64,000 nucleotides of DNA from Parapedobacter soli (GTDB lineage Bacteria > Bacteroidota > Bacteroidia > Sphingobacteriales > Sphingobacteriaceae): positions 62,001 to 126,000 of the forward strand of contig NZ_JAMXAY010000005.1 of assembly GCF_025460835.1 (NCBI RefSeq), read 5' to 3'. The notes beneath the pieces are model-generated. The model was given only the letters and a program-made list of their open reading frames with translations, did not search any database and was not told the DNA's origin. A program made the translations under genes and the position numbers. Position 1 is the stretch's first letter. Each line of letters starts with the position of its first letter. Shown here piece after piece: positions 42,340-52,589 of the stretch.

Positions 42340-42542
42340 ACTATTATTTCAGCTTCTAATCGTCGCTAAAAGTAAGAAAACTTTAAGTACATGACAAGGC
42401 TCGGTAACGGGCCATGCGACCGTCATGCAACTGCAACGCTGGCACCGGGCTTTGCCTCCCGGCGGTTCTTCCACCGACTCCTTTAGTTTTCATGCGCGGA
42501 GGGGTTCGGGTCATGCCGCACCGCGTCCGGGATATACCCAAC

Positions 42543-42752
42543 TGGTTTCATGTCGCACCGAAATGGGTTCAGGTTACACCGGCATGGTTTCATCTCGCAT
42601 CCACATGGGCTGATGTCGCACCCACATGGGTTCAGGTTACACCGGCATGGTTTCATCTCGCACCCACATGGGCTCATGTCGCATCCGCATGGGTTCATGT
42701 CGCATCCGCACGGGTTCAGGTTAAGCGGACATGGACCCAGGTTAAGCCGGAC
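42543..42752. repeat. 21-bp minisatellite, ten units
   Basis: Ten head-to-tail 21-bp units run from 42543 to 42752. In the plus frame they encode heptads of the form W-x-(Q/H)-V/L-(T/A)-P/S-x; in the minus frame they encode Cys-rich heptads (NPCGCDM-like). Units 2-4 (42564-42626) and 5-7 (42627-42689) repeat almost exactly, giving a 63-bp higher-order period. A plus-strand frame of 134 codons (42414-42818) contains the array but has no recognised domain, and both strands are open, so coding status is doubtful. GC-rich sequence that looks like decayed units continues toward 43170. Confidence 0.8.
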
Positions 42753-43740: not shown

Positions 43741-43766
43741 TTGTGTCATTTAAGTGTGTATGTTTG
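43741..43766 (+). promoter_or_regulatory. Bacteroidota promoter of the HEPN-containing pair
   Basis: TTG at 43741-43743 and TATGTTTG at 43759-43766 fit the -33 (TTG/TTTG) and -7 (TAnnTTTG) elements with a 15-base gap between them. The start codon at 43814 lies 47 bases downstream. This is one of the clearest promoters in the accessory region. Confidence 0.55.
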
Positions 43767-43813: not shown

Positions 43814-44350
43814 ATGACCGAAGACAACATTTCACCTACAAGAGGTACTGCTCAATTTAACGATTATCTTGTTAAGTACAAGGATCAAGCGAGGAAGGAA
43901 AAAGTAAATAATTTCTATCATGTTGATGTCGTCGCTGATGCCTATAATCAAGGGTTCAGTGACGGGGAACAGAAAGGTAGAAAAGAATTCATTGACGAAC
44001 TCGTGAAAAGTACGACCGAACGATTTACCCAACAGGCTAATCAGGTGTATATACTAACTAATGTTGCTGTATCTCATCTTCAAAAACATGGATACAAGGT
44101 CAATGCTTTTTTTATAAACATTGCTCATCTAAATCCTAAGGCACTCATTGCTGTTGATGGTGATTTGTTATTGGATGATGCATTTGTTGAGTTGTCTTAT
44201 TCAAAGCTGTTTGAGTTAAAAAAGATTTTCACCAAACTATTTGATTGCACTTTAGATATTGGGTTAATTTCGTACGATAACCTTGACAGGGATGCACTCA
44301 AAGAGGATCGGTTCGATTATTCTGAATTTATCGGTGCTATTAATGAGTAG
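43814..44350 (+). CDS. Unknown protein encoded upstream of a HEPN-like gene
   Basis: This 178-residue soluble protein has no signal peptide or membrane span. The N-terminal half is polar and helical (YNQGFSDGEQKGRKEFIDELVKSTTERF). The C-terminal half alternates strands and helices (VNAFFINIAHLNPKALIAVDGDLLLDDAFVELSYSKL, then TLDIGLISYDNLDRD) and ends KEDRFDYSEFI. I recognise no family. The strand-rich acidic C-terminal half could be a nucleotidyltransferase-like fold, but that is a guess based on its HEPN partner. It has its own promoter and overlaps the next gene by 8 bp, so the two are translated as a unit. Codon use is AT-richer than in the flanking core genes, suggesting transfer. Confidence 0.6.
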   Translation: MTEDNISPTRGTAQFNDYLVKYKDQARKEKVNNFYHVDVVADAYNQGFSDGEQKGRKEFIDELVKSTTERFTQQANQVYILTNVAVSHLQKHGYKVNAFFINIAHLNPKALIAVDGDLLLDDAFVELSYSKLFELKKIFTKLFDCTLDIGLISYDNLDRDALKEDRFDYSEFIGAINE

Positions 44351-44738
44351 GAAGCGAGAACATGGTGAAAGGAATTTCGAGCTTTCTGAACTTCTTCATG
44401 AGGGAAAGAAATATTACGACTGGGTGGTTACTACTTGTTTTTATGCTGCTATTCATTTTGTAGAAGACGTTTTATTACCATGTGAGATTAATGGTAGTAG
44501 CTGCAAGACAATCTCCGATGTCAAATCAGCGTACAAAATGCAAGGTCGACATTCTGCGAGGGAAAGACTTGTATGTGAAAAAATGGATTTGCAGACTGCA
44601 GTCAAATATAAGTGGCTTGATGATAAATCTAGGTATTCAAGATATACCACCTATAAGGTTACCCCAACTGAAGCCGATAAGGCCAGGGAATACACTAGAC
44701 AGATCCAAAACAGATGCTACGACGTAAACCAAACTTAA
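44343..44738 (+). CDS. HEPN-like small protein
   Basis: The 131-residue all-helical protein starts at the ATG at 44343, inside the end of the preceding gene (ATGAGTAG overlap). ELLHEGKKYYDWVVTTCFYAAIHFVEDVLLP, GRHSARERLV and KYKWLDDKSRYSRYTTYKV follow the pattern of HEPN proteins with a YDW...YAAxH helix, a H-x3-R element and a terminal SRxxRY element. The classical RNase motif R-x4-6-H is not seen, so nuclease activity cannot be assumed. Gene pairs of this type are often toxin-antitoxin or antiphage modules; the partner here is unknown. A terminator follows 26 bp downstream. Confidence 0.6.
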   Translation: MSRKREHGERNFELSELLHEGKKYYDWVVTTCFYAAIHFVEDVLLPCEINGSSCKTISDVKSAYKMQGRHSARERLVCEKMDLQTAVKYKWLDDKSRYSRYTTYKVTPTEADKAREYTRQIQNRCYDVNQT

Positions 44739-44760: not shown

Positions 44761-44970
44761 AAAACAAAACCCCATCAACCTAATGACGGGGTTTTGTTCG
44801 TTTTTAAGGATTTTGCGGTTCCACTATAAGTAATATTAAAATTCCAGTTATCCCAAGTCGGTAAACACCCGCTCAATTCGCCCCACAATTCGCTCCAACA
44901 GCACAAAACAAAATAGCAACCAACTGAAAAACAATTGATTGCTTTGTGAAGCAGTCGGGATGACAGGATT
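44761..44970 (+). mobile_element. Right-end remnant of an older, related integrative element
   Basis: This 210-bp stretch parallels the right end of the intact element (52334-52531). The order is a 31-bp identical block containing a terminator (44761-44791 versus 52334-52364), a worn arm site (44879-44898 versus 52440-52459, 15 of 20 bases equal), a shared CAACTGAAAA tract, and the 17-bp tRNA-end core (44954-44970 versus 52515-52531). The gap from arm site to core is 55 bases in both. It therefore marks the end of a second element, whose last genes would be the HEPN pair. Confidence 0.75.
44764..44805 (+). terminator. Rho-independent terminator after the HEPN-like gene
   Basis: ACAAAACCCC (44764-44773) pairs with GGGGTTTTGT (44788-44797), with TCA/TGA closing further inside, and TTTTT follows at 44801. 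The same hairpin, with a weaker downstream arm, recurs at 52337-52370 after the last gene of the intact element. Confidence 0.8.
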
Positions 44971-45029
44971 GGCTACGTCGCGCTATCCCCGCACTAAAGG
45001 CCGCAGCCATCCTTGAGGTGGGGAGGTCT

Positions 45030-45153
45030 CAACTAAAAAACGCCTGCTCTACGTGCCTGTGACTTTTACTGTTTTTCCACTCGCTCAAACGAGCTTGGCT
45101 CGCTTTAAAAACAGTAAAAGCCCTCCACCTACTTGCGGAGAGCTTTTTAGTTG
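45030..45153. repeat. Nested inverted repeat near the left attachment site
   Basis: The outer arms are CAACTAAAAA (45030-45039) and TTTTTAGTTG (45144-45153). The inner arms, perfect over 14 bp, are CTTTTACTGTTTTT (45063-45076) and AAAAACAGTAAAAG (45107-45120); between them CTCGCTCAAACGAG can fold again. The whole 124-bp unit is noncoding and ends exactly at the 13-bp core copy at 45154. It could be a structured RNA, a recombination substrate or a small non-autonomous insertion. Confidence 0.6.
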
Positions 45154-45166
45154 GTCGGGATGACAG
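45154..45166 (+). repeat. Third, partial copy of the tRNA-end core
   Basis: GTCGGGATGACAG repeats the first 13 bases of the attachment core exactly 200 bp to the right of the copy at 44954. A further TGAACC seven bases on also fits the tRNA T-arm. It may be the true left end of the intact element, leaving 44971-45153 as a separate insert. Confidence 0.6.
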
Positions 45167-45282
45167 TTCTTGAACCTTTTATTTTCATAGTCGCTAACAT
45201 TAACCTAAAATAGGCCAATACACCTTTTAAACGCATATTTTGTTAACACGTGTAAACCAATGTTAATAAAAACATCACATTT

Positions 45283-45304
45283 ACAGCCCCACAAATAGCC
45301 CCAC
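45283..45304 (+). repeat. Candidate integrase arm site, left
   Basis: A 22-bp sequence made of two AGCCCCAC words 12 bp apart. An identical 22-mer lies at 52438-52459 near the right end. Paired 8-bp words near both ends of a tyrosine-integrase element are what an N-terminal arm-binding domain would contact. The function is inferred. Confidence 0.6.
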
Positions 45305-45319
45305 AAAATTTATAATGTG

Positions 45320-45327
45320 TATATTTG
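45320..45327 (+). promoter_or_regulatory. Candidate -7 element of the integrase gene
   Basis: TATATTTG fits TAnnTTTG and ends 23 bases before the integrase ATG at 45351. It starts 15 bp after the arm site, so integrase bound at the arm could repress its own promoter. Confidence 0.5.
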
Positions 45328-45350
45328 CTATACGTTTTAAAATTCGACTT

Positions 45351-46712
45351 ATGGCATTGAAAACAACTTTCGAGTTGCGCCGGGATACGGCCAACAAAAA
45401 GGGAGAACACCCGGTTACCCTGATTGTATGGGTTGCAGGGAACCGCCGTAAGCTATCCACCGGGATTACTCTGCTGCCGGAGCAATGGGATAGCGAAAAC
45501 CAACAAGCCGTTTACATCAACCGCAAAGAGGCTAAAAGGCTATTGCCCAACATGAACCCGGACACATTGCCGTACAATGACGACATAAACCGCATCAATA
45601 AGGAATTGCGTTCAATTGCCGATGAAGTATCGGACATTGCCACGAAGTTTGAGATTGACCGTATCGCTTATACCGTTGAGGATGTTATCAGCGAATTTAA
45701 AACACGACGGAAACCCCAAGCCCAAAAGGTTGACCCTAAACACTACCTTGTCGACTTCATCGATCAATATGTTAATGACGTAAGAGCCACGCGCAACGAG
45801 GGTACGGTCAAAGTCTACATAACGACACGTAACCATATTGATGACTATGAAAAGCACAAGCGGCAAAGGATAACGATGGAAAGCGCGGGATACGGTTTTT
45901 TGCAGGCGTTCTACAATTATCTGATTGAGGAAAAAGGACAGATCAACGTTACCGCAGCAAAACAGATAACAACCGTCAAAACGTTTCTTTCCTTCGCCCG
46001 GAAACATGGCCACACGATAAACCAGACTTACCACGACTTCACCGTCAAGCGTGAAACGCTGGAAGTCATTGCACTGACCGAAAATGAGTTTCTGACACTG
46101 TACAATCTTGATTTAACCGGGGATGGTAAGGTATTGATACAGTCCGAACCGAAAGCCCTTTACATTTCACTAAACGCATTGGCTAAGGTTAGGGACGTGT
46201 TTTGTTTTTCATGCGTCACCGGGTTGCGGTATTCAGACCTTGCGCAATTGCGCCGTGAACACATCAAGAACGGCTACATACGGTTGACCGTCACTAAGAC
46301 CAAAGAACCCATTGAAATACCGTTGACGGCTTACGCAGCCGAAATACTGGCTAAGTACCCAAACCGGATAAAGATATTGCCTGTAATCAGTAGCCAAAAA
46401 TTCAATGCCTATCTGAAAGCCTTATGCAGGTATGCCGGGATAAATGAGGAAATTGAGATAGTACGCTACAAGGGTGCAAAACGCTATGCGGTAGTTTATC
46501 CCAAGTATGAATTGATAAGCGCCCACACCGGGCGCAAGACGTTCGCAACCCTATCACTCGAAAAGGGGTTGAACGCAGAGGAGGTAATGAGCATCACCGG
46601 GCATAAAAGCTATGCGAGCTTCAAAAGGTACGTGAAGGTCACACAAGAACGCAAAAAAGCGGTAATGGTTAAGGCGTGGGGTGCGCCGGAAACGATGAAA
46701 AAAGTAGACTAA
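45351..46712 (+). CDS. Tyrosine recombinase / integrase
   Basis: The protein is 453 residues from the ATG at 45351; an earlier in-frame start adds 12 unconserved residues and overlaps the promoter. The N-terminal arm-binding-like domain (about residues 1-90) contains FELRRDTANKKGEHPVTL and GNRRKLSTGITLLPEQWD. The core-binding SAM-like domain is at about 120-230. The catalytic domain (about 250-445) has the Arg in TGLRYSDL (about R293), a Lys in TKTKEPIEIPL, HTGRKTFATL (about H392 and R395), GHKSYASFKRY and the Tyr nucleophile (about Y427). All catalytic residues are present. It should carry out integration and excision at the tRNA-Pro core. Confidence 0.95.
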   Translation: MALKTTFELRRDTANKKGEHPVTLIVWVAGNRRKLSTGITLLPEQWDSENQQAVYINRKEAKRLLPNMNPDTLPYNDDINRINKELRSIADEVSDIATKFEIDRIAYTVEDVISEFKTRRKPQAQKVDPKHYLVDFIDQYVNDVRATRNEGTVKVYITTRNHIDDYEKHKRQRITMESAGYGFLQAFYNYLIEEKGQINVTAAKQITTVKTFLSFARKHGHTINQTYHDFTVKRETLEVIALTENEFLTLYNLDLTGDGKVLIQSEPKALYISLNALAKVRDVFCFSCVTGLRYSDLAQLRREHIKNGYIRLTVTKTKEPIEIPLTAYAAEILAKYPNRIKILPVISSQKFNAYLKALCRYAGINEEIEIVRYKGAKRYAVVYPKYELISAHTGRKTFATLSLEKGLNAEEVMSITGHKSYASFKRYVKVTQERKKAVMVKAWGAPETMKKVD

Positions 46713-46722
46713 AATAAACCTT

Positions 46723-46950
46723 ATGATGAAAGACAACAACGAACTGGACAGGTTAAAGAATGAACTATTTGCACGGCTGGAGGAACTCGATGACATGAAA
46801 ACAAGGTTGATTCAAAGGAATGATCAGCTTATCAATGCTAATAAAAAGATTGAGAATTTAAGAAAAGTGATAATGAACCTTACGGAGGGCAAACGAGGGT
46901 GTGTGGGTACTGACTTTCTAAACCTTAGAATGAAACATAATTTGAATTGA
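46723..46950 (+). CDS. Small coiled-coil protein of unknown function
   Basis: The 75-residue, highly charged protein contains a heptad-like helix (about residues 5-50, LDRLKNELFARLEELDDMKTR and INANKKIENLRKVI) and a short basic tail. I recognise no family. It lies 11 bp after the integrase gene and just before the next unknown gene, so it is probably co-transcribed with them. It could be a small partner or regulator of its neighbour. Confidence 0.55.
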   Translation: MMKDNNELDRLKNELFARLEELDDMKTRLIQRNDQLINANKKIENLRKVIMNLTEGKRGCVGTDFLNLRMKHNLN

Positions 46951-46955
46951 TTGAG

Positions 46956-47798
46956 ATGGGAAAGAAACTACTTACAGACGATTACAATGAGATTGTAAAG
47001 GGCGCGTTTAAGATTGATGAAAGCGATTTTCACAACTATTACCTGAATATCGTAAACGAGCATTACGAAAGCAATAACGATATTGCGGAAAAACTGATTG
47101 AATTTGTCGAAAAATGGGCAGACGGTTTTAGGGGTTACGTGATAGACCACGACAATGCGATTCTATCCTATGATAGGTTCAAAGCATGGAACGCGGGAGG
47201 TTTATTTTTTCCATTACCCAACAACCTAAGTCAACAACTGGGGATAATTCGACAGGTAAATAAACCATTCTTTGACGGTCAAATAGAGCAAATAGAGCGC
47301 ATAAAAACATTAATTGAGTTGAGGGAACTCCAAAAGAAACTTGAAAGCCTTGCACCTAAAATCGTTGTTAATGCGACAAACGAGTTATGTCCTTATAATG
47401 GGGAGCTTGACTTTGAAAAAATTAATGAGCGGAAACGGATACTGGATTTGGTGACAATGAAATTTGACGAAGGTAAACGAAAGCCTAAAAACAATGACAA
47501 AGTGCCAAACGGTGCGCAATGGGCGGTGATATTTCACTACGCACACAAAAGCGGCGGTTTGCCTGACGCTACCAATGATGACGATAGAATAAAAGCTTTC
47601 ATAGATGATCACGAAATCAGTCAAACGTTTAAGTATCTACGTAAGGAATACTACGATGCAAAGAAAAAAATTGATGACGATTGCAGTTTTTCAATAGCGA
47701 AATTGGAAGCCGTCATTCATTACTTGAAAAGCATGTATCCAAACGGCGCAACGCTTGCGGAAAATGATATGGCCCACATAAAAAGTATGCAAGAATAG
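46956..47798 (+). CDS. Unknown element-borne protein, mostly helical
   Basis: From the ATG at 46956 this is 280 residues with no membrane span; a TTG three codons earlier is possible. The N-terminal two thirds are helical and charged. The C-terminal part (about residues 185-275: PNGAQWAVIFHYAHKSGGLPDATNDDDRIKAFID..., FKYLRKEYYDAKKK) resembles a domain often seen in proteins next to Bacteroidota integrases, recalled from memory. Its position between integrase and excisionase suggests either element regulation or cargo such as a defence protein. No catalytic motif is evident. Confidence 0.55.
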   Translation: MGKKLLTDDYNEIVKGAFKIDESDFHNYYLNIVNEHYESNNDIAEKLIEFVEKWADGFRGYVIDHDNAILSYDRFKAWNAGGLFFPLPNNLSQQLGIIRQVNKPFFDGQIEQIERIKTLIELRELQKKLESLAPKIVVNATNELCPYNGELDFEKINERKRILDLVTMKFDEGKRKPKNNDKVPNGAQWAVIFHYAHKSGGLPDATNDDDRIKAFIDDHEISQTFKYLRKEYYDAKKKIDDDCSFSIAKLEAVIHYLKSMYPNGATLAENDMAHIKSMQE

Positions 47799-47876
47799 TC
47801 GCCCTTTACCGAAGCCGAGAAAAAAAATAAAATTTTTCTTTCTGATATTCAATCATTTGAAACTATTTTCTTGCCA

Positions 47877-47900
47877 GTAACCCGTTAGTTACCGGGTTAC
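47877..47900. promoter_or_regulatory. Inverted repeat upstream of the excisionase-primase operon
   Basis: GTAACCCG (47877-47884) and CGGGTTAC (47893-47900) form perfect 8-bp arms around TTAGTTAC, which itself repeats part of the arm. It lies 45 bp before the ATG of the excisionase-like gene in a 146-bp gap that is otherwise A+T-rich. It could be an operator or a binding site for replication or excision proteins. Confidence 0.55.
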
Positions 47901-47944
47901 CCTTTACTTGTTTTGACCCATTGTTAATTCAAAATGTAAAAACA

Positions 47945-48223
47945 ATGGAACAAGTATTTTTTAATGTACCCTTAAGCAAACTGGAACCCGTGTTTAAGGG
48001 ATGGGTGCGTGATTGCCTAAATGAACGTACCGTGGAGGAACAAACCACACCAGAAATAATAGACGGTGACGAACTAATCAAGAAACTTGGGATTACCCGG
48101 CAAACATTGTTACGTTGGCGAAAGCAAAACCGCATCCCTTACGTACAGGCCGGGAGCGTCATCCGCTATGATTTAAACAAGGTTATTAAAGCCTTAGAAA
48201 ACAAGAAAGGGGGTGCCAGATGA
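47945..48223 (+). CDS. Excisionase-like helix-turn-helix protein
   Basis: The 92-residue protein carries a MerR/excisionase-type helix-turn-helix (HTH_17 style) at about residues 40-90: IIDGDELIKKLGITRQTLLRWRKQNRIPYVQAGSVIRYDLNKVI. In related elements such proteins act as excisionase or transcriptional activator. The start at 47945 is preferred over an in-frame codon 24 bases earlier. It overlaps the next gene by 4 bp (ATGA), the first of a chain of overlapping genes leading to the primase. Confidence 0.8.
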   Translation: MEQVFFNVPLSKLEPVFKGWVRDCLNERTVEEQTTPEIIDGDELIKKLGITRQTLLRWRKQNRIPYVQAGSVIRYDLNKVIKALENKKGGAR

Positions 48224-48507
48224 CAACCCCTAACAATAACTTTCAAGGACAGGGCAAAGATAGCAATCACAGCGTGCAAAAGCGAATTTTCGCAGCCTAT
48301 TTGCGCCGGAAAACAGCCACCTGCACAATGGTTGCAGAGGATACCGGGATACGGCAGAAATGCCTGACCAGATACAAACGCGAGATGCAGCGCATGGGCT
48401 TGCTGGAAGTGGTTTTCACAGCTCCATGTAAGTATACCGGGCGCGTAGCTCAATACCTCACCACCAATCCGGCACTTATCCAGTCACTGAAAGGAGGTAA
48501 GCGATGA
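48220..48507 (+). CDS. Small winged-helix-like protein
   Basis: The 95-residue basic protein contains SVQKRIFAAYLRRKTATCTMVAEDTGIRQKCLTRYKREMQRMGLLEVV (about residues 18-64), which has the spacing of a winged helix-turn-helix with a following wing. Proteins like it commonly sit between excisionase and primase genes in Bacteroidota elements. It overlaps its neighbours on both sides by 4 bp. Control of replication or copy state is a reasonable guess. Confidence 0.65.
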   Translation: MTTPNNNFQGQGKDSNHSVQKRIFAAYLRRKTATCTMVAEDTGIRQKCLTRYKREMQRMGLLEVVFTAPCKYTGRVAQYLTTNPALIQSLKGGKR

Positions 48508-48695
48508 GGTCACATAAAAAATGGGCGCACCGACATACGGGCGACATGACCCAGCTTATGCGCTACCTGAAAAGGCTCCCTATGTTACCCAACATCGGCG
48601 AGCCGGGTATCAACCGCCTTGCCAAACAATGGGACACCGCACGGGATAAGGTTTATGGTTTAATCACAAAAGTTTTGAGCGATGGAAGCTATTAA
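48504..48695 (+). CDS. Very small basic protein
   Basis: This 63-residue protein is rich in Arg, Lys and His (KKWAHRHTGDMTQLMRYLKRL). The second half (GINRLAKQWDTARDKVYGLI) could form a helix-turn-helix. It overlaps the preceding gene by 4 bp and the primase gene by 14 bp, so its expression is tied to the replication operon. No family is recognised. Confidence 0.55.
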   Translation: MRSHKKWAHRHTGDMTQLMRYLKRLPMLPNIGEPGINRLAKQWDTARDKVYGLITKVLSDGSY

Positions 48696-50238
48696 GATAA
48701 ACCCGGCATTTGATGACCTTATCAACCCGGAAACAATCATCAACCACATGGAGCAACTTAAAAGCATTAGCCCATCAATGCCCCATGCTGAAATATTGCA
48801 TCAACTGATAGAACAGATTGAACCGCTGGATTTTGAAGTATTGGCGTTTCCACAGGCCAAACAATTAAGGGAACAGCTGGAAAGGGCAACGCACGGAAGC
48901 GATGAAGCGAAGGACATTCAAAAGCAACTGGACGGCCTGAAACTGAACCTTAAACATTATTTGGTTTTGTCCGTTGAAAACGCGCTAATGTTAGCCGAAA
49001 AAAACCGTTGGGGCTTGTGCAAAAACCACGATTTTATTTACCTCTACAATGGAACCTATTGGGCCGACATTGACAAAGAGACATTCCAGAAGTTTTTGGG
49101 TGAAGCAGCCGAAAAAATGGGCGTAACCAAGTTTTCAGCAAGGTTTTACCAATTTCGGGAACAGCTTTTCAAACAATTCCTTGCAACCGCTTATTTGCCC
49201 ACACCGGAAGGCAACAAGGATAAGGTACTGATTAACCTACTCAACGGAACATTTGAAATAAGCCCGCAGGGAACGAAGCTAAGGCCGTTCGACCGCAACG
49301 ACTTCATTACATACCAATTACCTTTTGAATACGACCCGACAGCCAAAGCGCCTTTGTTTGAAGCATACCTAAACCGGGTATTGCCTGACAAAGAACGTCA
49401 ACGGGTATTGGCCGAGTACTTAGGTTTTGTTTTCATCAAGCACGGCAGTAACGCATTAAAAGAGGAAAAAGCCCTTATCCTGTACGGTACGGGCGCAAAC
49501 GGTAAAAGCGTATTCTTTGAAGTTGTCAACGCCTTGTTGGGTACGGATAACATTAGCAGCTATTCATTACAGAGCCTGACCAATGATAACGGGTATTTCC
49601 GGGCAAAGCTGGCTAACAAGTTGGTCAATTACGCAAGTGAGATTAACGGCAATTTGGAAGCGTCCATTTTCAAACAATTGGTATCTGGTGAACCCGTTGA
49701 AGCCCGCTTACCTTATGGCCAGCCTTTCATCTTGAAGCAGTACGCCAAACTGATTTTCAATTGTAATGAATTGCCCAAAGACGTTGAACATACAAACGCC
49801 TATTTCAGGAGGTTTTTAATCATCCCGTTTGATGTTACTATTCCCGAACACGAACAGGATAAAAGCCTACATACAAAGATCATTGAAAACGAGCTATCAG
49901 GCGTATTCAATTGGGTATTGCAAGGACTTAACAGGTTGCTGGAGCAAAAGAAGTTTTCAGATTGTGAAGCAGCCCAACAAGCCGTTGAACAATACAAAAT
50001 TGAAAGTAACAGCGTACAGATGTTTTTGAATGAAAACGAATACAAAGGCAGTTTAACCAATTACAAGTTAATAAAAGACCTGTACCCGGAATATAGAGCC
50101 TTTTGTATTGATGACGGAATGACACCTTTCAAAAAGACCAATTTCATAAAACAGTTACGGGCTTTGAGTTTGGTTGTAGATAGGGTTTCACAAAACCAAT
50201 TGGCGGTTTTTATTGAAGCACCGGGACTAAGTTTTTAA
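48682..50238 (+). CDS. P4-type DNA primase-helicase (D5/SF3 helicase)
   Basis: The 518-residue protein has a D5-type N-terminal region (about residues 90-250: LINLLNGTFEI, DFITYQLPFEYDP, YLGFVFIKHGSN). The superfamily 3 helicase domain follows (about 255-420). Walker A is GTGANGKS (about 269-276); further motifs include LANKLVNYASEING, KQLVSGEPVEARLPYG and LIFNCNELPKDVEHTNAYFRRFLIIPFD. The C-terminal region (about 440-510) resembles the D5 DNA-binding winged helix. It would unwind and start replication at the element's origin after excision, as the alpha protein does for satellite phage P4. It lacks an obvious toprim domain, which may be supplied by the next gene. Confidence 0.9.
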   Translation: MEAIKINPAFDDLINPETIINHMEQLKSISPSMPHAEILHQLIEQIEPLDFEVLAFPQAKQLREQLERATHGSDEAKDIQKQLDGLKLNLKHYLVLSVENALMLAEKNRWGLCKNHDFIYLYNGTYWADIDKETFQKFLGEAAEKMGVTKFSARFYQFREQLFKQFLATAYLPTPEGNKDKVLINLLNGTFEISPQGTKLRPFDRNDFITYQLPFEYDPTAKAPLFEAYLNRVLPDKERQRVLAEYLGFVFIKHGSNALKEEKALILYGTGANGKSVFFEVVNALLGTDNISSYSLQSLTNDNGYFRAKLANKLVNYASEINGNLEASIFKQLVSGEPVEARLPYGQPFILKQYAKLIFNCNELPKDVEHTNAYFRRFLIIPFDVTIPEHEQDKSLHTKIIENELSGVFNWVLQGLNRLLEQKKFSDCEAAQQAVEQYKIESNSVQMFLNENEYKGSLTNYKLIKDLYPEYRAFCIDDGMTPFKKTNFIKQLRALSLVVDRVSQNQLAVFIEAPGLSF

Positions 50239-50261
50239 CGCAAATAAAAAAGGTTTTTTCA

Positions 50262-51707
50262 ATGAGTAACTTTAATAACTTTAGTAACCAACCCCACCGA
50301 TACAGTTTAGAAAAAGGCAGTAAAAAGCACCATTGCCCCGACTGTAACAAAAAGACGTTTGTACTGTATATTGATACAGAAACAGGCGACCACTTACCCG
50401 AACAGTACGGACGTTGCGACCGTGAAAGTAAATGTTCATACCACCTCAACCCTTATTCAGACGGTTACGCAAAAGCAATTTGGGAACAGGAACAGGGCAA
50501 CCGTTCGGAATTACCGAACAAATGGAAACCCCAACAAAAAAAGAAAGCACCACGGCCCGAACCTCAACCCGTTTACTTTGACTTTGATACATTCAAACAG
50601 ACATTGCAGCCCGAGCGCTATGTAATTAATACGTTCATCCAAAACCTGCTAAGCCGGGTACAATTTCCCTTTGGAGTTGATGAGGTCACAAAGGTTATCG
50701 AGCTGTACAGACTTGGTACGGTGGCCAATGGCTACAGAGCCGGAGCCGTCACCTTTCCGTTTATTGACGTTGGGGGTAACGTTAGGGCCATACAAGTAAA
50801 ACAATTTGACGAACACAACCACACCACAGGTACGGACTTTTTACACTCCATCATCGAGAAACATCACACCCGTAACAACAAGCCGTTGCCCGATTGGCTG
50901 GAAGCATACACAAGGCAGGATAAACGAATTTCCTGTTTATTTGGCGAACACCTTTTAAGCAAGTACCACAGCAACCCCGTTGCATTAGTTGAAGCCCCAA
51001 AAACAGCCGTTTACGGTACATTGTATTTTGGTTTGCCTGAAACACCTGAAAGCCTTATTTGGTTGGCAGTTTACAACAAAAGCAGTTTTTCATTTGACAA
51101 GCTGAAAGTATTACAAGGGCGTTTTGTTTATGTATTTCCCGACCTTTCAAAAGACGGTAACACCTTCAAAGAATGGGAAACCAAAGCCAAAGAATATGAA
51201 AGCCGTTTACCCGGTACACGCTTTATATTTTCGGACTTACTGGAGCAGTTAGCACCTGAACGGGACAAAAGCGAAGGCAACGACCTTGCAGACTATTTAA
51301 TAAAACAGGATTGGCGACTATTCAGGAAACGGAATATTCAGGAACAACCACCACAGCCCGAACCTGAAAAAGTTACTAAAGTTACTAAAGTTACCCCCCA
51401 ACAAAACATTATTTTTTCACACGTTGAACCATTGCCAAAAGTTGAGGTATTCAAAACTGAACGAATTGAACAGCCCCAAAACTGGAGCAATGATATTGCA
51501 GAATTTGAAAACTACTTTGCAAGTATTGAACTACCAACCCAACCCATAAAGCTGAACAGGTGCAGCACAATAACGGATTGTTCCCTATTCATTGAAAGCC
51601 ACTTTGCCACCTTGAAAGCGAACAACAGTAAACGGACATTCTTACCCTACCTCAACCGCCTGCAGGAGCTGAAACGCATTTTAATTTCATCCCCTGTATC
51701 ACGTTAA
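50262..51707 (+). CDS. Zinc-finger/toprim-like replication protein (DUF6371-like)
   Basis: The 481-residue protein has an N-terminal zinc-finger-like region with CPDCNKKTF and CDRESKCSYH (about residues 26-66). A long middle domain (about 95-350) includes VTFPFIDVGGNVRAIQVKQFDE, a VALVEAPKTAVYG strand (toprim-like Glu) and FVYVFPDLSKDGNTFKEWE (Asp-rich strand). I read it as the primase half of the system and as similar to DUF6371 proteins. The C-terminal 130 residues are Pro/Glu/Thr/Val-rich (KVTKVTKVTP repeat) and look disordered. It follows the primase-helicase by 23 bp. Confidence 0.72.
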   Translation: MSNFNNFSNQPHRYSLEKGSKKHHCPDCNKKTFVLYIDTETGDHLPEQYGRCDRESKCSYHLNPYSDGYAKAIWEQEQGNRSELPNKWKPQQKKKAPRPEPQPVYFDFDTFKQTLQPERYVINTFIQNLLSRVQFPFGVDEVTKVIELYRLGTVANGYRAGAVTFPFIDVGGNVRAIQVKQFDEHNHTTGTDFLHSIIEKHHTRNNKPLPDWLEAYTRQDKRISCLFGEHLLSKYHSNPVALVEAPKTAVYGTLYFGLPETPESLIWLAVYNKSSFSFDKLKVLQGRFVYVFPDLSKDGNTFKEWETKAKEYESRLPGTRFIFSDLLEQLAPERDKSEGNDLADYLIKQDWRLFRKRNIQEQPPQPEPEKVTKVTKVTPQQNIIFSHVEPLPKVEVFKTERIEQPQNWSNDIAEFENYFASIELPTQPIKLNRCSTITDCSLFIESHFATLKANNSKRTFLPYLNRLQELKRILISSPVSR

Positions 51708-51734
51708 AACTTCTTAATTATTTAGGTTTGCATT

Positions 51735-52328
51735 ATGGGAAGACCACACACATTGCCGGATTTGTATGACAGCGTTTTAAGGCTTAGGCTTGCGTTGTTG
51801 AAGCGTGACGGCTATTTTAAACCCAATATCCGTAGATCGGGCATTGTCACTTGGCATGACAGGTACGGTGAAAAGCGTGCGAGCATTTCCATTGAAACCA
51901 ATACCCTATCTGACGATGGGCATTATATCGAACTGGATTACAGGTATGGGGGCGATACCCGTAAGTACAGGGTATACATTACCTATCAGCCGTCAAATCT
52001 TGGAAAGGGATTGATACCTTATTTCGTCTGCCCGCAGACAGGGAAGCGATGCCGGATACTTTACAGTATTGGCGGTTATTTCCTGCACCGGGAAGCGTTC
52101 AACCATGCCATGTATGAGTGCCAGACGCAAAGCAAAAGGTACAGGGATTTAGAACGGCTTTATGGCGCACATTTACGACTGGACAGTAATTATGAAAAAC
52201 TTCACAAAAAACATTTTATGAAGTATTATGCCGGGAAGCCGACAAAGCGATACCAAAAAATATTGAGGGAAATACAACGCGGCGAAAGCGTGCCATACCA
52301 AGAAGTGGAGCGGGCGATGATTATGTAA
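51735..52328 (+). CDS. Unknown element-borne protein with possible zinc-binding core
   Basis: The 197-residue basic protein contains VCPQTGKRCRILYSIGGYFLHREAF...YECQTQSKR (about residues 98-140), a Cys-rich strand pair of a kind seen in small proteins of Bacteroidota and proteobacterial mobile elements. The N-terminus (MGRPHTLPDLYDSVLRLRLALLKRDGYFKP) is helical. It is the last gene of the element and is followed by the conserved terminator repeat. The function is unknown; nucleic-acid binding is plausible. Confidence 0.6.
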   Translation: MGRPHTLPDLYDSVLRLRLALLKRDGYFKPNIRRSGIVTWHDRYGEKRASISIETNTLSDDGHYIELDYRYGGDTRKYRVYITYQPSNLGKGLIPYFVCPQTGKRCRILYSIGGYFLHREAFNHAMYECQTQSKRYRDLERLYGAHLRLDSNYEKLHKKHFMKYYAGKPTKRYQKILREIQRGESVPYQEVERAMIM

Positions 52329-52333
52329 GAAGC

Positions 52334-52364
52334 AAAACAAAACCCCATCAACCTAATGACGGGG
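52334..52364 (+). repeat. 31-bp block identical to 44761-44791 (terminator hairpin)
   Basis: All 31 bases match the copy after the HEPN-like gene. It contains the CCCC-TCA/TGA-GGGG hairpin; the downstream T-run is weaker here (CTTCGTACGTTTT). It ends the element's operon and, with the core and arm site, defines a conserved right-end module. Confidence 0.75.
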
Positions 52365-52437
52365 CTTCGTACGTTTTAAAATACCTTGCGGCACTGGAAC
52401 AAAGATAGCACATTTCTTTGACCTGAAAACAGTCAAA

Positions 52438-52459
52438 ACAGCCCCACAAATAGCCCCAC
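52438..52459 (+). repeat. Candidate integrase arm site, right
   Basis: Identical to the 22-mer at 45283-45304. It ends 55 bases before the attachment core at 52515, the same spacing as in the older right end at 44898/44954. Confidence 0.6.
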
Positions 52460-52515
52460 TACCAAAAACAAAAACAGCAAACAACTGAAAACCAATCGAT
52501 TGCTGCTTAATTATG

Positions 52516-52589
52516 TCGGGATGACAGGATTCGAACCTGCGGCCTCTTCGTCCCGAACGAAGCGCGCTACCGGGCTGCGCTACATCCCG
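52516..52589 (-). tRNA. tRNA-Pro (anticodon CGG)
   Basis: On the minus strand the 74-base sequence folds as a cloverleaf: acceptor CGGGATG/CATCCCG with discriminator A, D-arm with AGCGCAGCCCGGTAGCGCG, anticodon stem CTTCG/CGAAG around TTCGGGA (anticodon CGG, reading CCG), and T-arm with GGTTCGAATCC. CCA is not encoded. Its 3' end is the insertion site of the integrative element to the left and remains intact. Confidence 0.96.

What the first reader, a model, noticed from the sequence alone, without database searches (positions are those of the whole stretch)
43814..44738. Unrecognised two-gene module: unknown protein overlapping a HEPN-like protein
The two genes overlap by 8 bp, have a clear promoter upstream and a strong terminator downstream, and are more A+T-rich than the core genome. 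The second product has the YDW...YAAxH and SRxxRY layout of HEPN-type helical bundles but no R-x4-6-H RNase motif. The first is an unfamiliar alpha/beta protein. Compact, self-contained, two-gene HEPN units on mobile elements are frequently toxin-antitoxin or antiphage systems, and this pair fits none that I can name.
Basis: inference. Interest (0 to 1): 0.65.

Follow-up and report, generated by a model that had tools for sequence, protein, structure and literature searches.

The report
Mobile HEPN pair with uncatalogued partner
Two small overlapping genes form a mobile pair, found together in dozens of bacteria and some phages, that looks like a toxin and its controlling partner; the partner belongs to a protein family absent from every family library searched, and it lacks the enzyme active site that known partners of such toxins use.

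Summary
ORF1 (43814-44350, 178 aa) and ORF2 (44343-44738, 131 aa) overlap by 8 bp, are A+T-rich (37.5% G+C against 49.1%) and end in a strong terminator; the promoter claim is weak. ORF2 passes the Pfam HEPN (PF05168) cut-off. ORF1 matches no Pfam, NCBIfam, PADLOC or PHROG family. The pair is real and conserved: 76 of 80 testable HEPN relatives have an ORF1 homologue directly upstream (Bacteroidota and several other phyla; four phage-type contigs), the two proteins co-vary (mirror-tree r = 0.75), and only about 1% of Bacteroidota genomes carry it. In the window it sits at the right end of a tRNA-Pro integrative element, beside a second element with a related right end. ORF1 is modelled (pLDDT 88) as a 55-residue helix plus a small alpha/beta domain. 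Its weak fold matches include MntA antitoxins and ribosomal KH domains, but the nucleotidyltransferase motif is absent in the family, so the known AMPylation mechanism is not expected. ORF2 lacks Rx4-6H but keeps the motif arginine and an invariant upstream histidine. Best reading: a mobile toxin-antitoxin or abortive-infection module, HEPN effector plus non-enzymatic partner. Toxicity, RNase activity and binding are inferred, not shown.

The parts
43759..43766 (+). Possible Bacteroidota-type -7 element TATGTTTG
   Evidence: Pattern match only; TAnnTTTG occurs at chance frequency in the window
43814..44350 (+). ORF1, 178 aa, uncatalogued family; proposed antitoxin / regulatory partner: long helix (37-91) plus beta-beta-alpha-beta domain; most relatives end in a DG[FY] motif (DRF in the window copy)
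   Evidence: No match in Pfam, NCBIfam, PADLOC or PHROGs; 73-member family alignment A3; AlphaFold2 pLDDT 87.9
44343..44738 (+). ORF2, 131 aa, HEPN-domain protein; proposed toxin/effector
   Evidence: Pfam PF05168 E = 7.2e-5, 23.4 bits, above cut-off 22; 69-member alignment A4 with invariant N11, D26, W27, T30, T31, F33, Y34, H70; R100 and Y101 in 99%
44343..44350 (+). 8-bp start/stop overlap (ATGAGTAG) coupling the two genes
   Evidence: Direct reading; +8 is the commonest spacing in the family, 12 of 78 loci
44763..44798 (+). Intrinsic terminator hairpin, shared with the right end of the neighbouring element
   Evidence: z = -3.8; homologous stretch at 52334-52391
44761..44970 (.). Element right end: terminator to att core, homologous to 52334-52531
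   Evidence: Direct repeats D1 (77%) and D2 (86%); alignment A9
44954..44970 (+). att core GTCGGGATGACAGGATT, identical to the 3' end of tRNA-Pro(cgg) at 52515-52531
   Evidence: Exact match; 0.15 matches expected by chance for up to 3 mismatches; tRNA 52515-52589
45315..52328 (+). Neighbouring integrative element (tyrosine integrase, HTH, D5_N/DUF5906 primase-helicase, DUF6371 protein, cargo ORF)
   Evidence: Pfam matches; bounded by att 44954 and tRNA-Pro 52515

Best explanation
A mobile two-gene toxin-antitoxin or abortive-infection module. Step 1 (shown): the two genes overlap and travel together between genomes and phages. Step 2 (inferred): ORF1 is made first and binds ORF2 through its long helix and small alpha/beta domain, holding it inactive by contact, not by AMPylation. 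Step 3 (inferred): ORF2, a HEPN protein probably working as a dimer like other HEPNs, is the effector. It would cut or bind RNA using the retained motif arginine (R100) with an alternative histidine (invariant H70, or H38) and tyrosines Y101/Y104. Step 4 (inferred): loss or displacement of ORF1, by loss of the element or by phage infection, frees ORF2, which halts growth. It works like a HEPN/MNT toxin-antitoxin pair, but with a partner that carries no nucleotidyltransferase active site.
For: HEPN domain. Upstream homologue in 76 of 80 loci by iterative HMM. Small freestanding unit, with gaps on both sides in most loci. Co-variation r = 0.75, maximum 0.10 in 1000 permutations; r = 0.66 without the window's clade. 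Sporadic spread: 1 of 9 genomes of its genus, about 1% of the phylum, several phyla. Both genes in four viral contigs, with phage-type genes beside them. Element-end location. Effector-like pattern: invariant polar residues in HEPN, none in the faster-evolving ORF1. Antitoxin-first order as in HEPN/MNT dyads, and alternative-histidine HEPNs (AbiV, AF0298), are described in PMC3710099. Several Foldseek hits of ORF1 are MntA antitoxin chains (5yep_A named as Mnt antidote).
Against: No toxicity, RNase or binding data. The window's HEPN lacks Rx4-6H, so it may be non-catalytic. Fold matches of ORF1 never reach E < 0.001, and KH/uS3 domains score as well as MntA. Profile-profile comparison of ORF1 with MNTs is null (probability 0.2%). 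Neighbouring genes are mostly ordinary. The two fused homologues (L079, L083) are damaged genes and are not used as evidence of a working fusion.
Confidence: 0.58

Rival explanations
1. Phage-sensing defence pair: ORF1 is the sensor or adaptor that recognises a phage product or nucleic acid and switches on the HEPN effector, without a classical toxin-antitoxin addiction function.
For: Pairs in phages and elements; scattered defence genes such as DpdF, DarG, PsyrT, a type IIG enzyme and a mads_3 protein among sampled neighbours; uS3 KH-like fold matches would fit nucleic-acid sensing.
Against: No strong defence-island enrichment, no background control; gene order and co-variation fit an antitoxin equally well.
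Confidence: 0.2
2. A divergent Class II HEPN/MNT (type VII) system: ORF1 is still an active nucleotidyltransferase that AMPylates ORF2 at Y101 or Y104.
For: PF05168 HEPN with conserved tyrosine and no RX4H is exactly the toxin of Class II pairs (PMC7641770); MntA chains among the fold matches.
Against: GSx10DxD absent: the one loose regex hit of 73 is at the N-terminal tip of L003 and not in the alpha/beta domain, against 29 of 29 MNT controls; hhalign probability 0.2%.
Confidence: 0.07
3. A non-toxic RNA-binding regulatory pair: an inactive HEPN plus a KH-like protein that regulates host or element RNA, as proposed for MtlR-type HEPNs.
For: Rx4-6H absent in the window's copy; best Foldseek hits to ORF1 are uS3 KH domains (E = 0.02).
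Against: Strictly invariant polar residues including H70, and R100 in 99%, suggest a retained active site; the sporadic mobile spread fits conflict genes better.
Confidence: 0.12

Closest known systems
HEPN/MNT (HepT/MntA) type VII toxin-antitoxin, Class I
   Same: Two small adjacent genes, one a HEPN protein, the partner commonly upstream; mobile and sporadic; a weak fold resemblance of ORF1 to MntA (5yep_A, 6m6v_A, 7aer_A)
   Different: HEPN belongs to PF05168, not DUF86/NTase_sub_bind; no RX4HXY; ORF1 lacks GSX10DXD and shows no sequence similarity to MNTs
Class II HEPN/MNT (PF05168/PF01909), untested biochemically (PMC7641770)
   Same: PF05168 HEPN without RX4H but with a conserved tyrosine; two-gene module
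   Different: Class II partners keep GSX10DXD; none of the 73 ORF1 homologues has it in the alpha/beta domain
HEPN families with an alternative active site: AbiV and AF0298-type HEPN-T (PMC3710099)
   Same: Motif arginine kept, motif histidine lost, another conserved histidine N-terminal to it (H70 invariant here)
   Different: No ORF1-like partner described in the passages read; position of H70 relative to R100 in space not measured here
HEPN-T family Cpin_6617 (PMC3710099, Table 1)
   Same: Bacteroidota-linked HEPN-T without Rx4-6H
   Different: Known only from that table; identity with this family could not be tested, and no ORF1-like partner is listed there

Membership tests
HEPN superfamily (Pfam PF05168) | Profile match above the curated cut-off | tested here: met
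   P0002: 23.4 bits, cut-off 22, E = 7.2e-5 over residues 6-123; 15 of 69 relatives match at E < 0.1
HEPN superfamily (Pfam PF05168) | All-helical bundle of four to five helices | tested here: met
   AlphaFold2 model of the fused homologue L079: HEPN part is helices 163-177, 181-203, 233-244, 246-264 with one short hairpin, pLDDT above 90 over most of it; that copy lacks the C-terminal end, and no listed fold hit was to a HEPN chain
HEPN RNase toxins | Rx4-6H motif | tested here: not met
   Window protein has R100-Y-T-T-Y-K; about ten of 69 relatives keep R-x4/6-H at this place
HEPN with alternative active site (AbiV/AF0298 type) | Motif arginine plus another conserved histidine N-terminal to it | tested here: met
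   R100 99%, H70 100%, H38 94%; spatial proximity not measurable here
HEPN/MNT type VII toxin-antitoxin | Partner with nucleotidyltransferase motif GSX10DXD | tested here: not met
   No placed motif in 73 ORF1 proteins, 29 of 29 in MNT controls
HEPN/MNT type VII toxin-antitoxin | Partner homologous to minimal nucleotidyltransferases | tested here: inconclusive
   hhalign probability 0.2%; Foldseek matches to MntA at E 0.026-0.1, not significant
HEPN/MNT type VII toxin-antitoxin | Toxin motif RX4HXY | tested here: not met
   Absent from the window protein
Two-gene toxin-antitoxin module | Two small adjacent or overlapping genes that stay together and spread horizontally | tested here: met
   Overlap, 76 of 80 linkage, sporadic spread
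Two-gene toxin-antitoxin module | One product toxic, the other neutralises it | not testable with these tools
   Needs expression experiments
Named anti-phage defence systems (PADLOC-DB 2.0.0) | Match to a system's protein models | tested here: not met
   No match for P0001 or P0002 at E up to 10; only stray weak hits among HEPN relatives

The most novel reading that the evidence does not exclude
An undescribed class of HEPN module in which the toxin is held by a non-enzymatic partner, possibly a nucleotidyltransferase that has lost its active site, so that control is by binding instead of AMPylation, and in which the HEPN uses a non-canonical Arg/His site.
Probability: 0.35. Interest if true: 0.66.

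Novelty: new variant of a known kind. Interest (0 to 1): 0.5.

Why it matters
HEPN/MNT pairs are described as the most abundant toxin-antitoxin kind, and the known way of silencing the toxin is AMPylation by the partner. A conserved, mobile HEPN pair whose partner has no nucleotidyltransferase site would show that the same toxin fold can be controlled differently. It also gives a testable set of dozens of loci for HEPNs that lack the standard RNase motif, whose activity is an open question in the HEPN literature (PMC3710099, PMC7641770).

Tried and rejected
ORF1 as a sequence-level MNT: rejected. Plasmids: no match for ORF1, ORF2 or two diverse HEPN relatives; annotated phages: no match for ORF2. 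Passenger gene of an IS1595-type transposon: transposases abut or lie near the pair in seven loci, but no terminal inverted repeats bracket both, so not claimed. Fused homologues as proof of interaction: L083 (same as L007/G342) lost its 5' part and L079 has an in-frame stop; both are damaged, neither was mended, and L079 was folded only over its open part. Fold search of the L079 model gave no HEPN chain and nothing significant. The first mixed alignment for the fusion mis-split and was replaced. Four distant HEPN loci have other short upstream genes with no detectable similarity to ORF1. Two weak ORF1 hits: one lies in a 221-aa protein that resembles the YggS family (recalled, not tested), the other has internal stops.

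Full report
Observation. They are A+T-rich and followed by a strong terminator hairpin. The promoter is not convincing.

What the proteins are. ORF2 passes the Pfam HEPN cut-off. ORF1 matches nothing in Pfam, NCBIfam, PADLOC or PHROGs, and no Pfam family is shared by more than three of its 73 relatives even at E < 0.1. Neither alignment finds a solved relative by sequence.

The pair elsewhere. Among 100 relatives only three genomes have either gene, the same three in both searches, and always as a pair. A scan of about 85,000 species genomes with the HEPN alignment returned 79 loci. Of 80 upstream proteins that could be tested, 76 are ORF1 homologues by iterative HMM; in the other four another short gene precedes the HEPN gene. 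An overlap of 8 bp is the commonest spacing. Because these loci were fetched with the HEPN, the reverse was tested in 396 genomes of the phylum: ORF1 hits above noise occur only next to the HEPN gene. The HEPN rows come mostly from Bacteroidota but also from Planctomycetota, Fibrobacterota, Ignavibacteriota, Delongiibacteriota, Peregrinibacteriota and Patescibacteria records (binned genomes may hold foreign contigs). Distances in the two families correlate at r = 0.75.

Mobility. In the window the pair lies directly before a copy of the tRNA-Pro 3' end (44954-44970) that bounds an integrase/primase element ending at the intact tRNA at 52515. The stretch from terminator to att after the pair is homologous to the right end of that element. 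So the pair occupies the right-end cargo place of a related element inserted at the same tRNA, of which the left part was not found. This reconstruction is inference from the repeats. Four viral contigs carry both genes, with phage-type genes nearby: tail lysozyme, recombination exonuclease, primosomal protein, and an integrase with a ParB-like gene. IS1595-type transposases adjoin seven loci, but no bracketing repeats were found. Neighbours include some defence genes but are mostly ordinary.

Structure. ORF1 is predicted with good confidence (pLDDT 87.9) as a 55-residue helix followed by beta-beta-alpha-beta-alpha-beta. No fold match is significant. The best are uS3 KH domains and, at similar E-values, MntA antitoxins from HEPN/MNT complexes (chain identity), with nucleotidyltransferases and S3-like proteins in the viral library. 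The nucleotidyltransferase motif is absent throughout the family and the sequence profiles do not match. The fused homologue L079 gives a confident two-domain model, but without coordinates or error maps no interface can be claimed.

Active site. HEPN invariants are N11, D26, W27, T30, T31, F33, Y34 and H70, with R100 and Y101 at 99%, H38 94%, H7 and Y104 90%. This is the pattern discussed for AbiV and AF0298-type HEPNs, where the motif histidine is gone but another histidine upstream may serve (PMC3710099). Class II HEPN/MNT toxins likewise lack RX4H and keep a tyrosine, but their partners keep GSX10DXD (PMC7641770).

Mechanism. Shown: linkage, co-variation, mobility, HEPN membership, absence of the nucleotidyltransferase motif. 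Inferred: ORF2 is the toxic RNase or RNA binder, ORF1 neutralises or gates it by contact, and release follows loss of the module or infection. The literature searches found no description of this pair, but only open-licence papers were searched.

Noticed in passing
window 44880-45320 and 52334-52531: Three att-like copies (44954, 45154, 52515) and repeated element right ends suggest tandem or successive insertions at one tRNA-Pro gene.
   Followed up: partly
window 51735-52328: 197-aa cargo ORF of the neighbouring element, in the same right-end position as the HEPN pair; no Pfam match.
   Followed up: no
window 42536-42718: Tandem array with 21-bp period (about nine copies) left of the pair.
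   Followed up: no
L019, L059, L065, L074, L084, L142, L144: IS1595-type transposase genes abut or lie within about 1 kb of homologous pairs, in some cases a few bases from the HEPN stop codon.
   Followed up: partly
L099 595-2337, L100 1129-2877: Large proteins of the same genome (about 580 aa) that carry HEPN domains; L099 also contains nucleotidyltransferase-like stretches.
   Followed up: no
L008/L136, L135, L078, L082, L086: More distant HEPN genes are also preceded by short genes that by eye have a beta-beta-alpha-beta pattern but no detectable similarity to ORF1; possibly a wider set of such pairs.
   Followed up: partly
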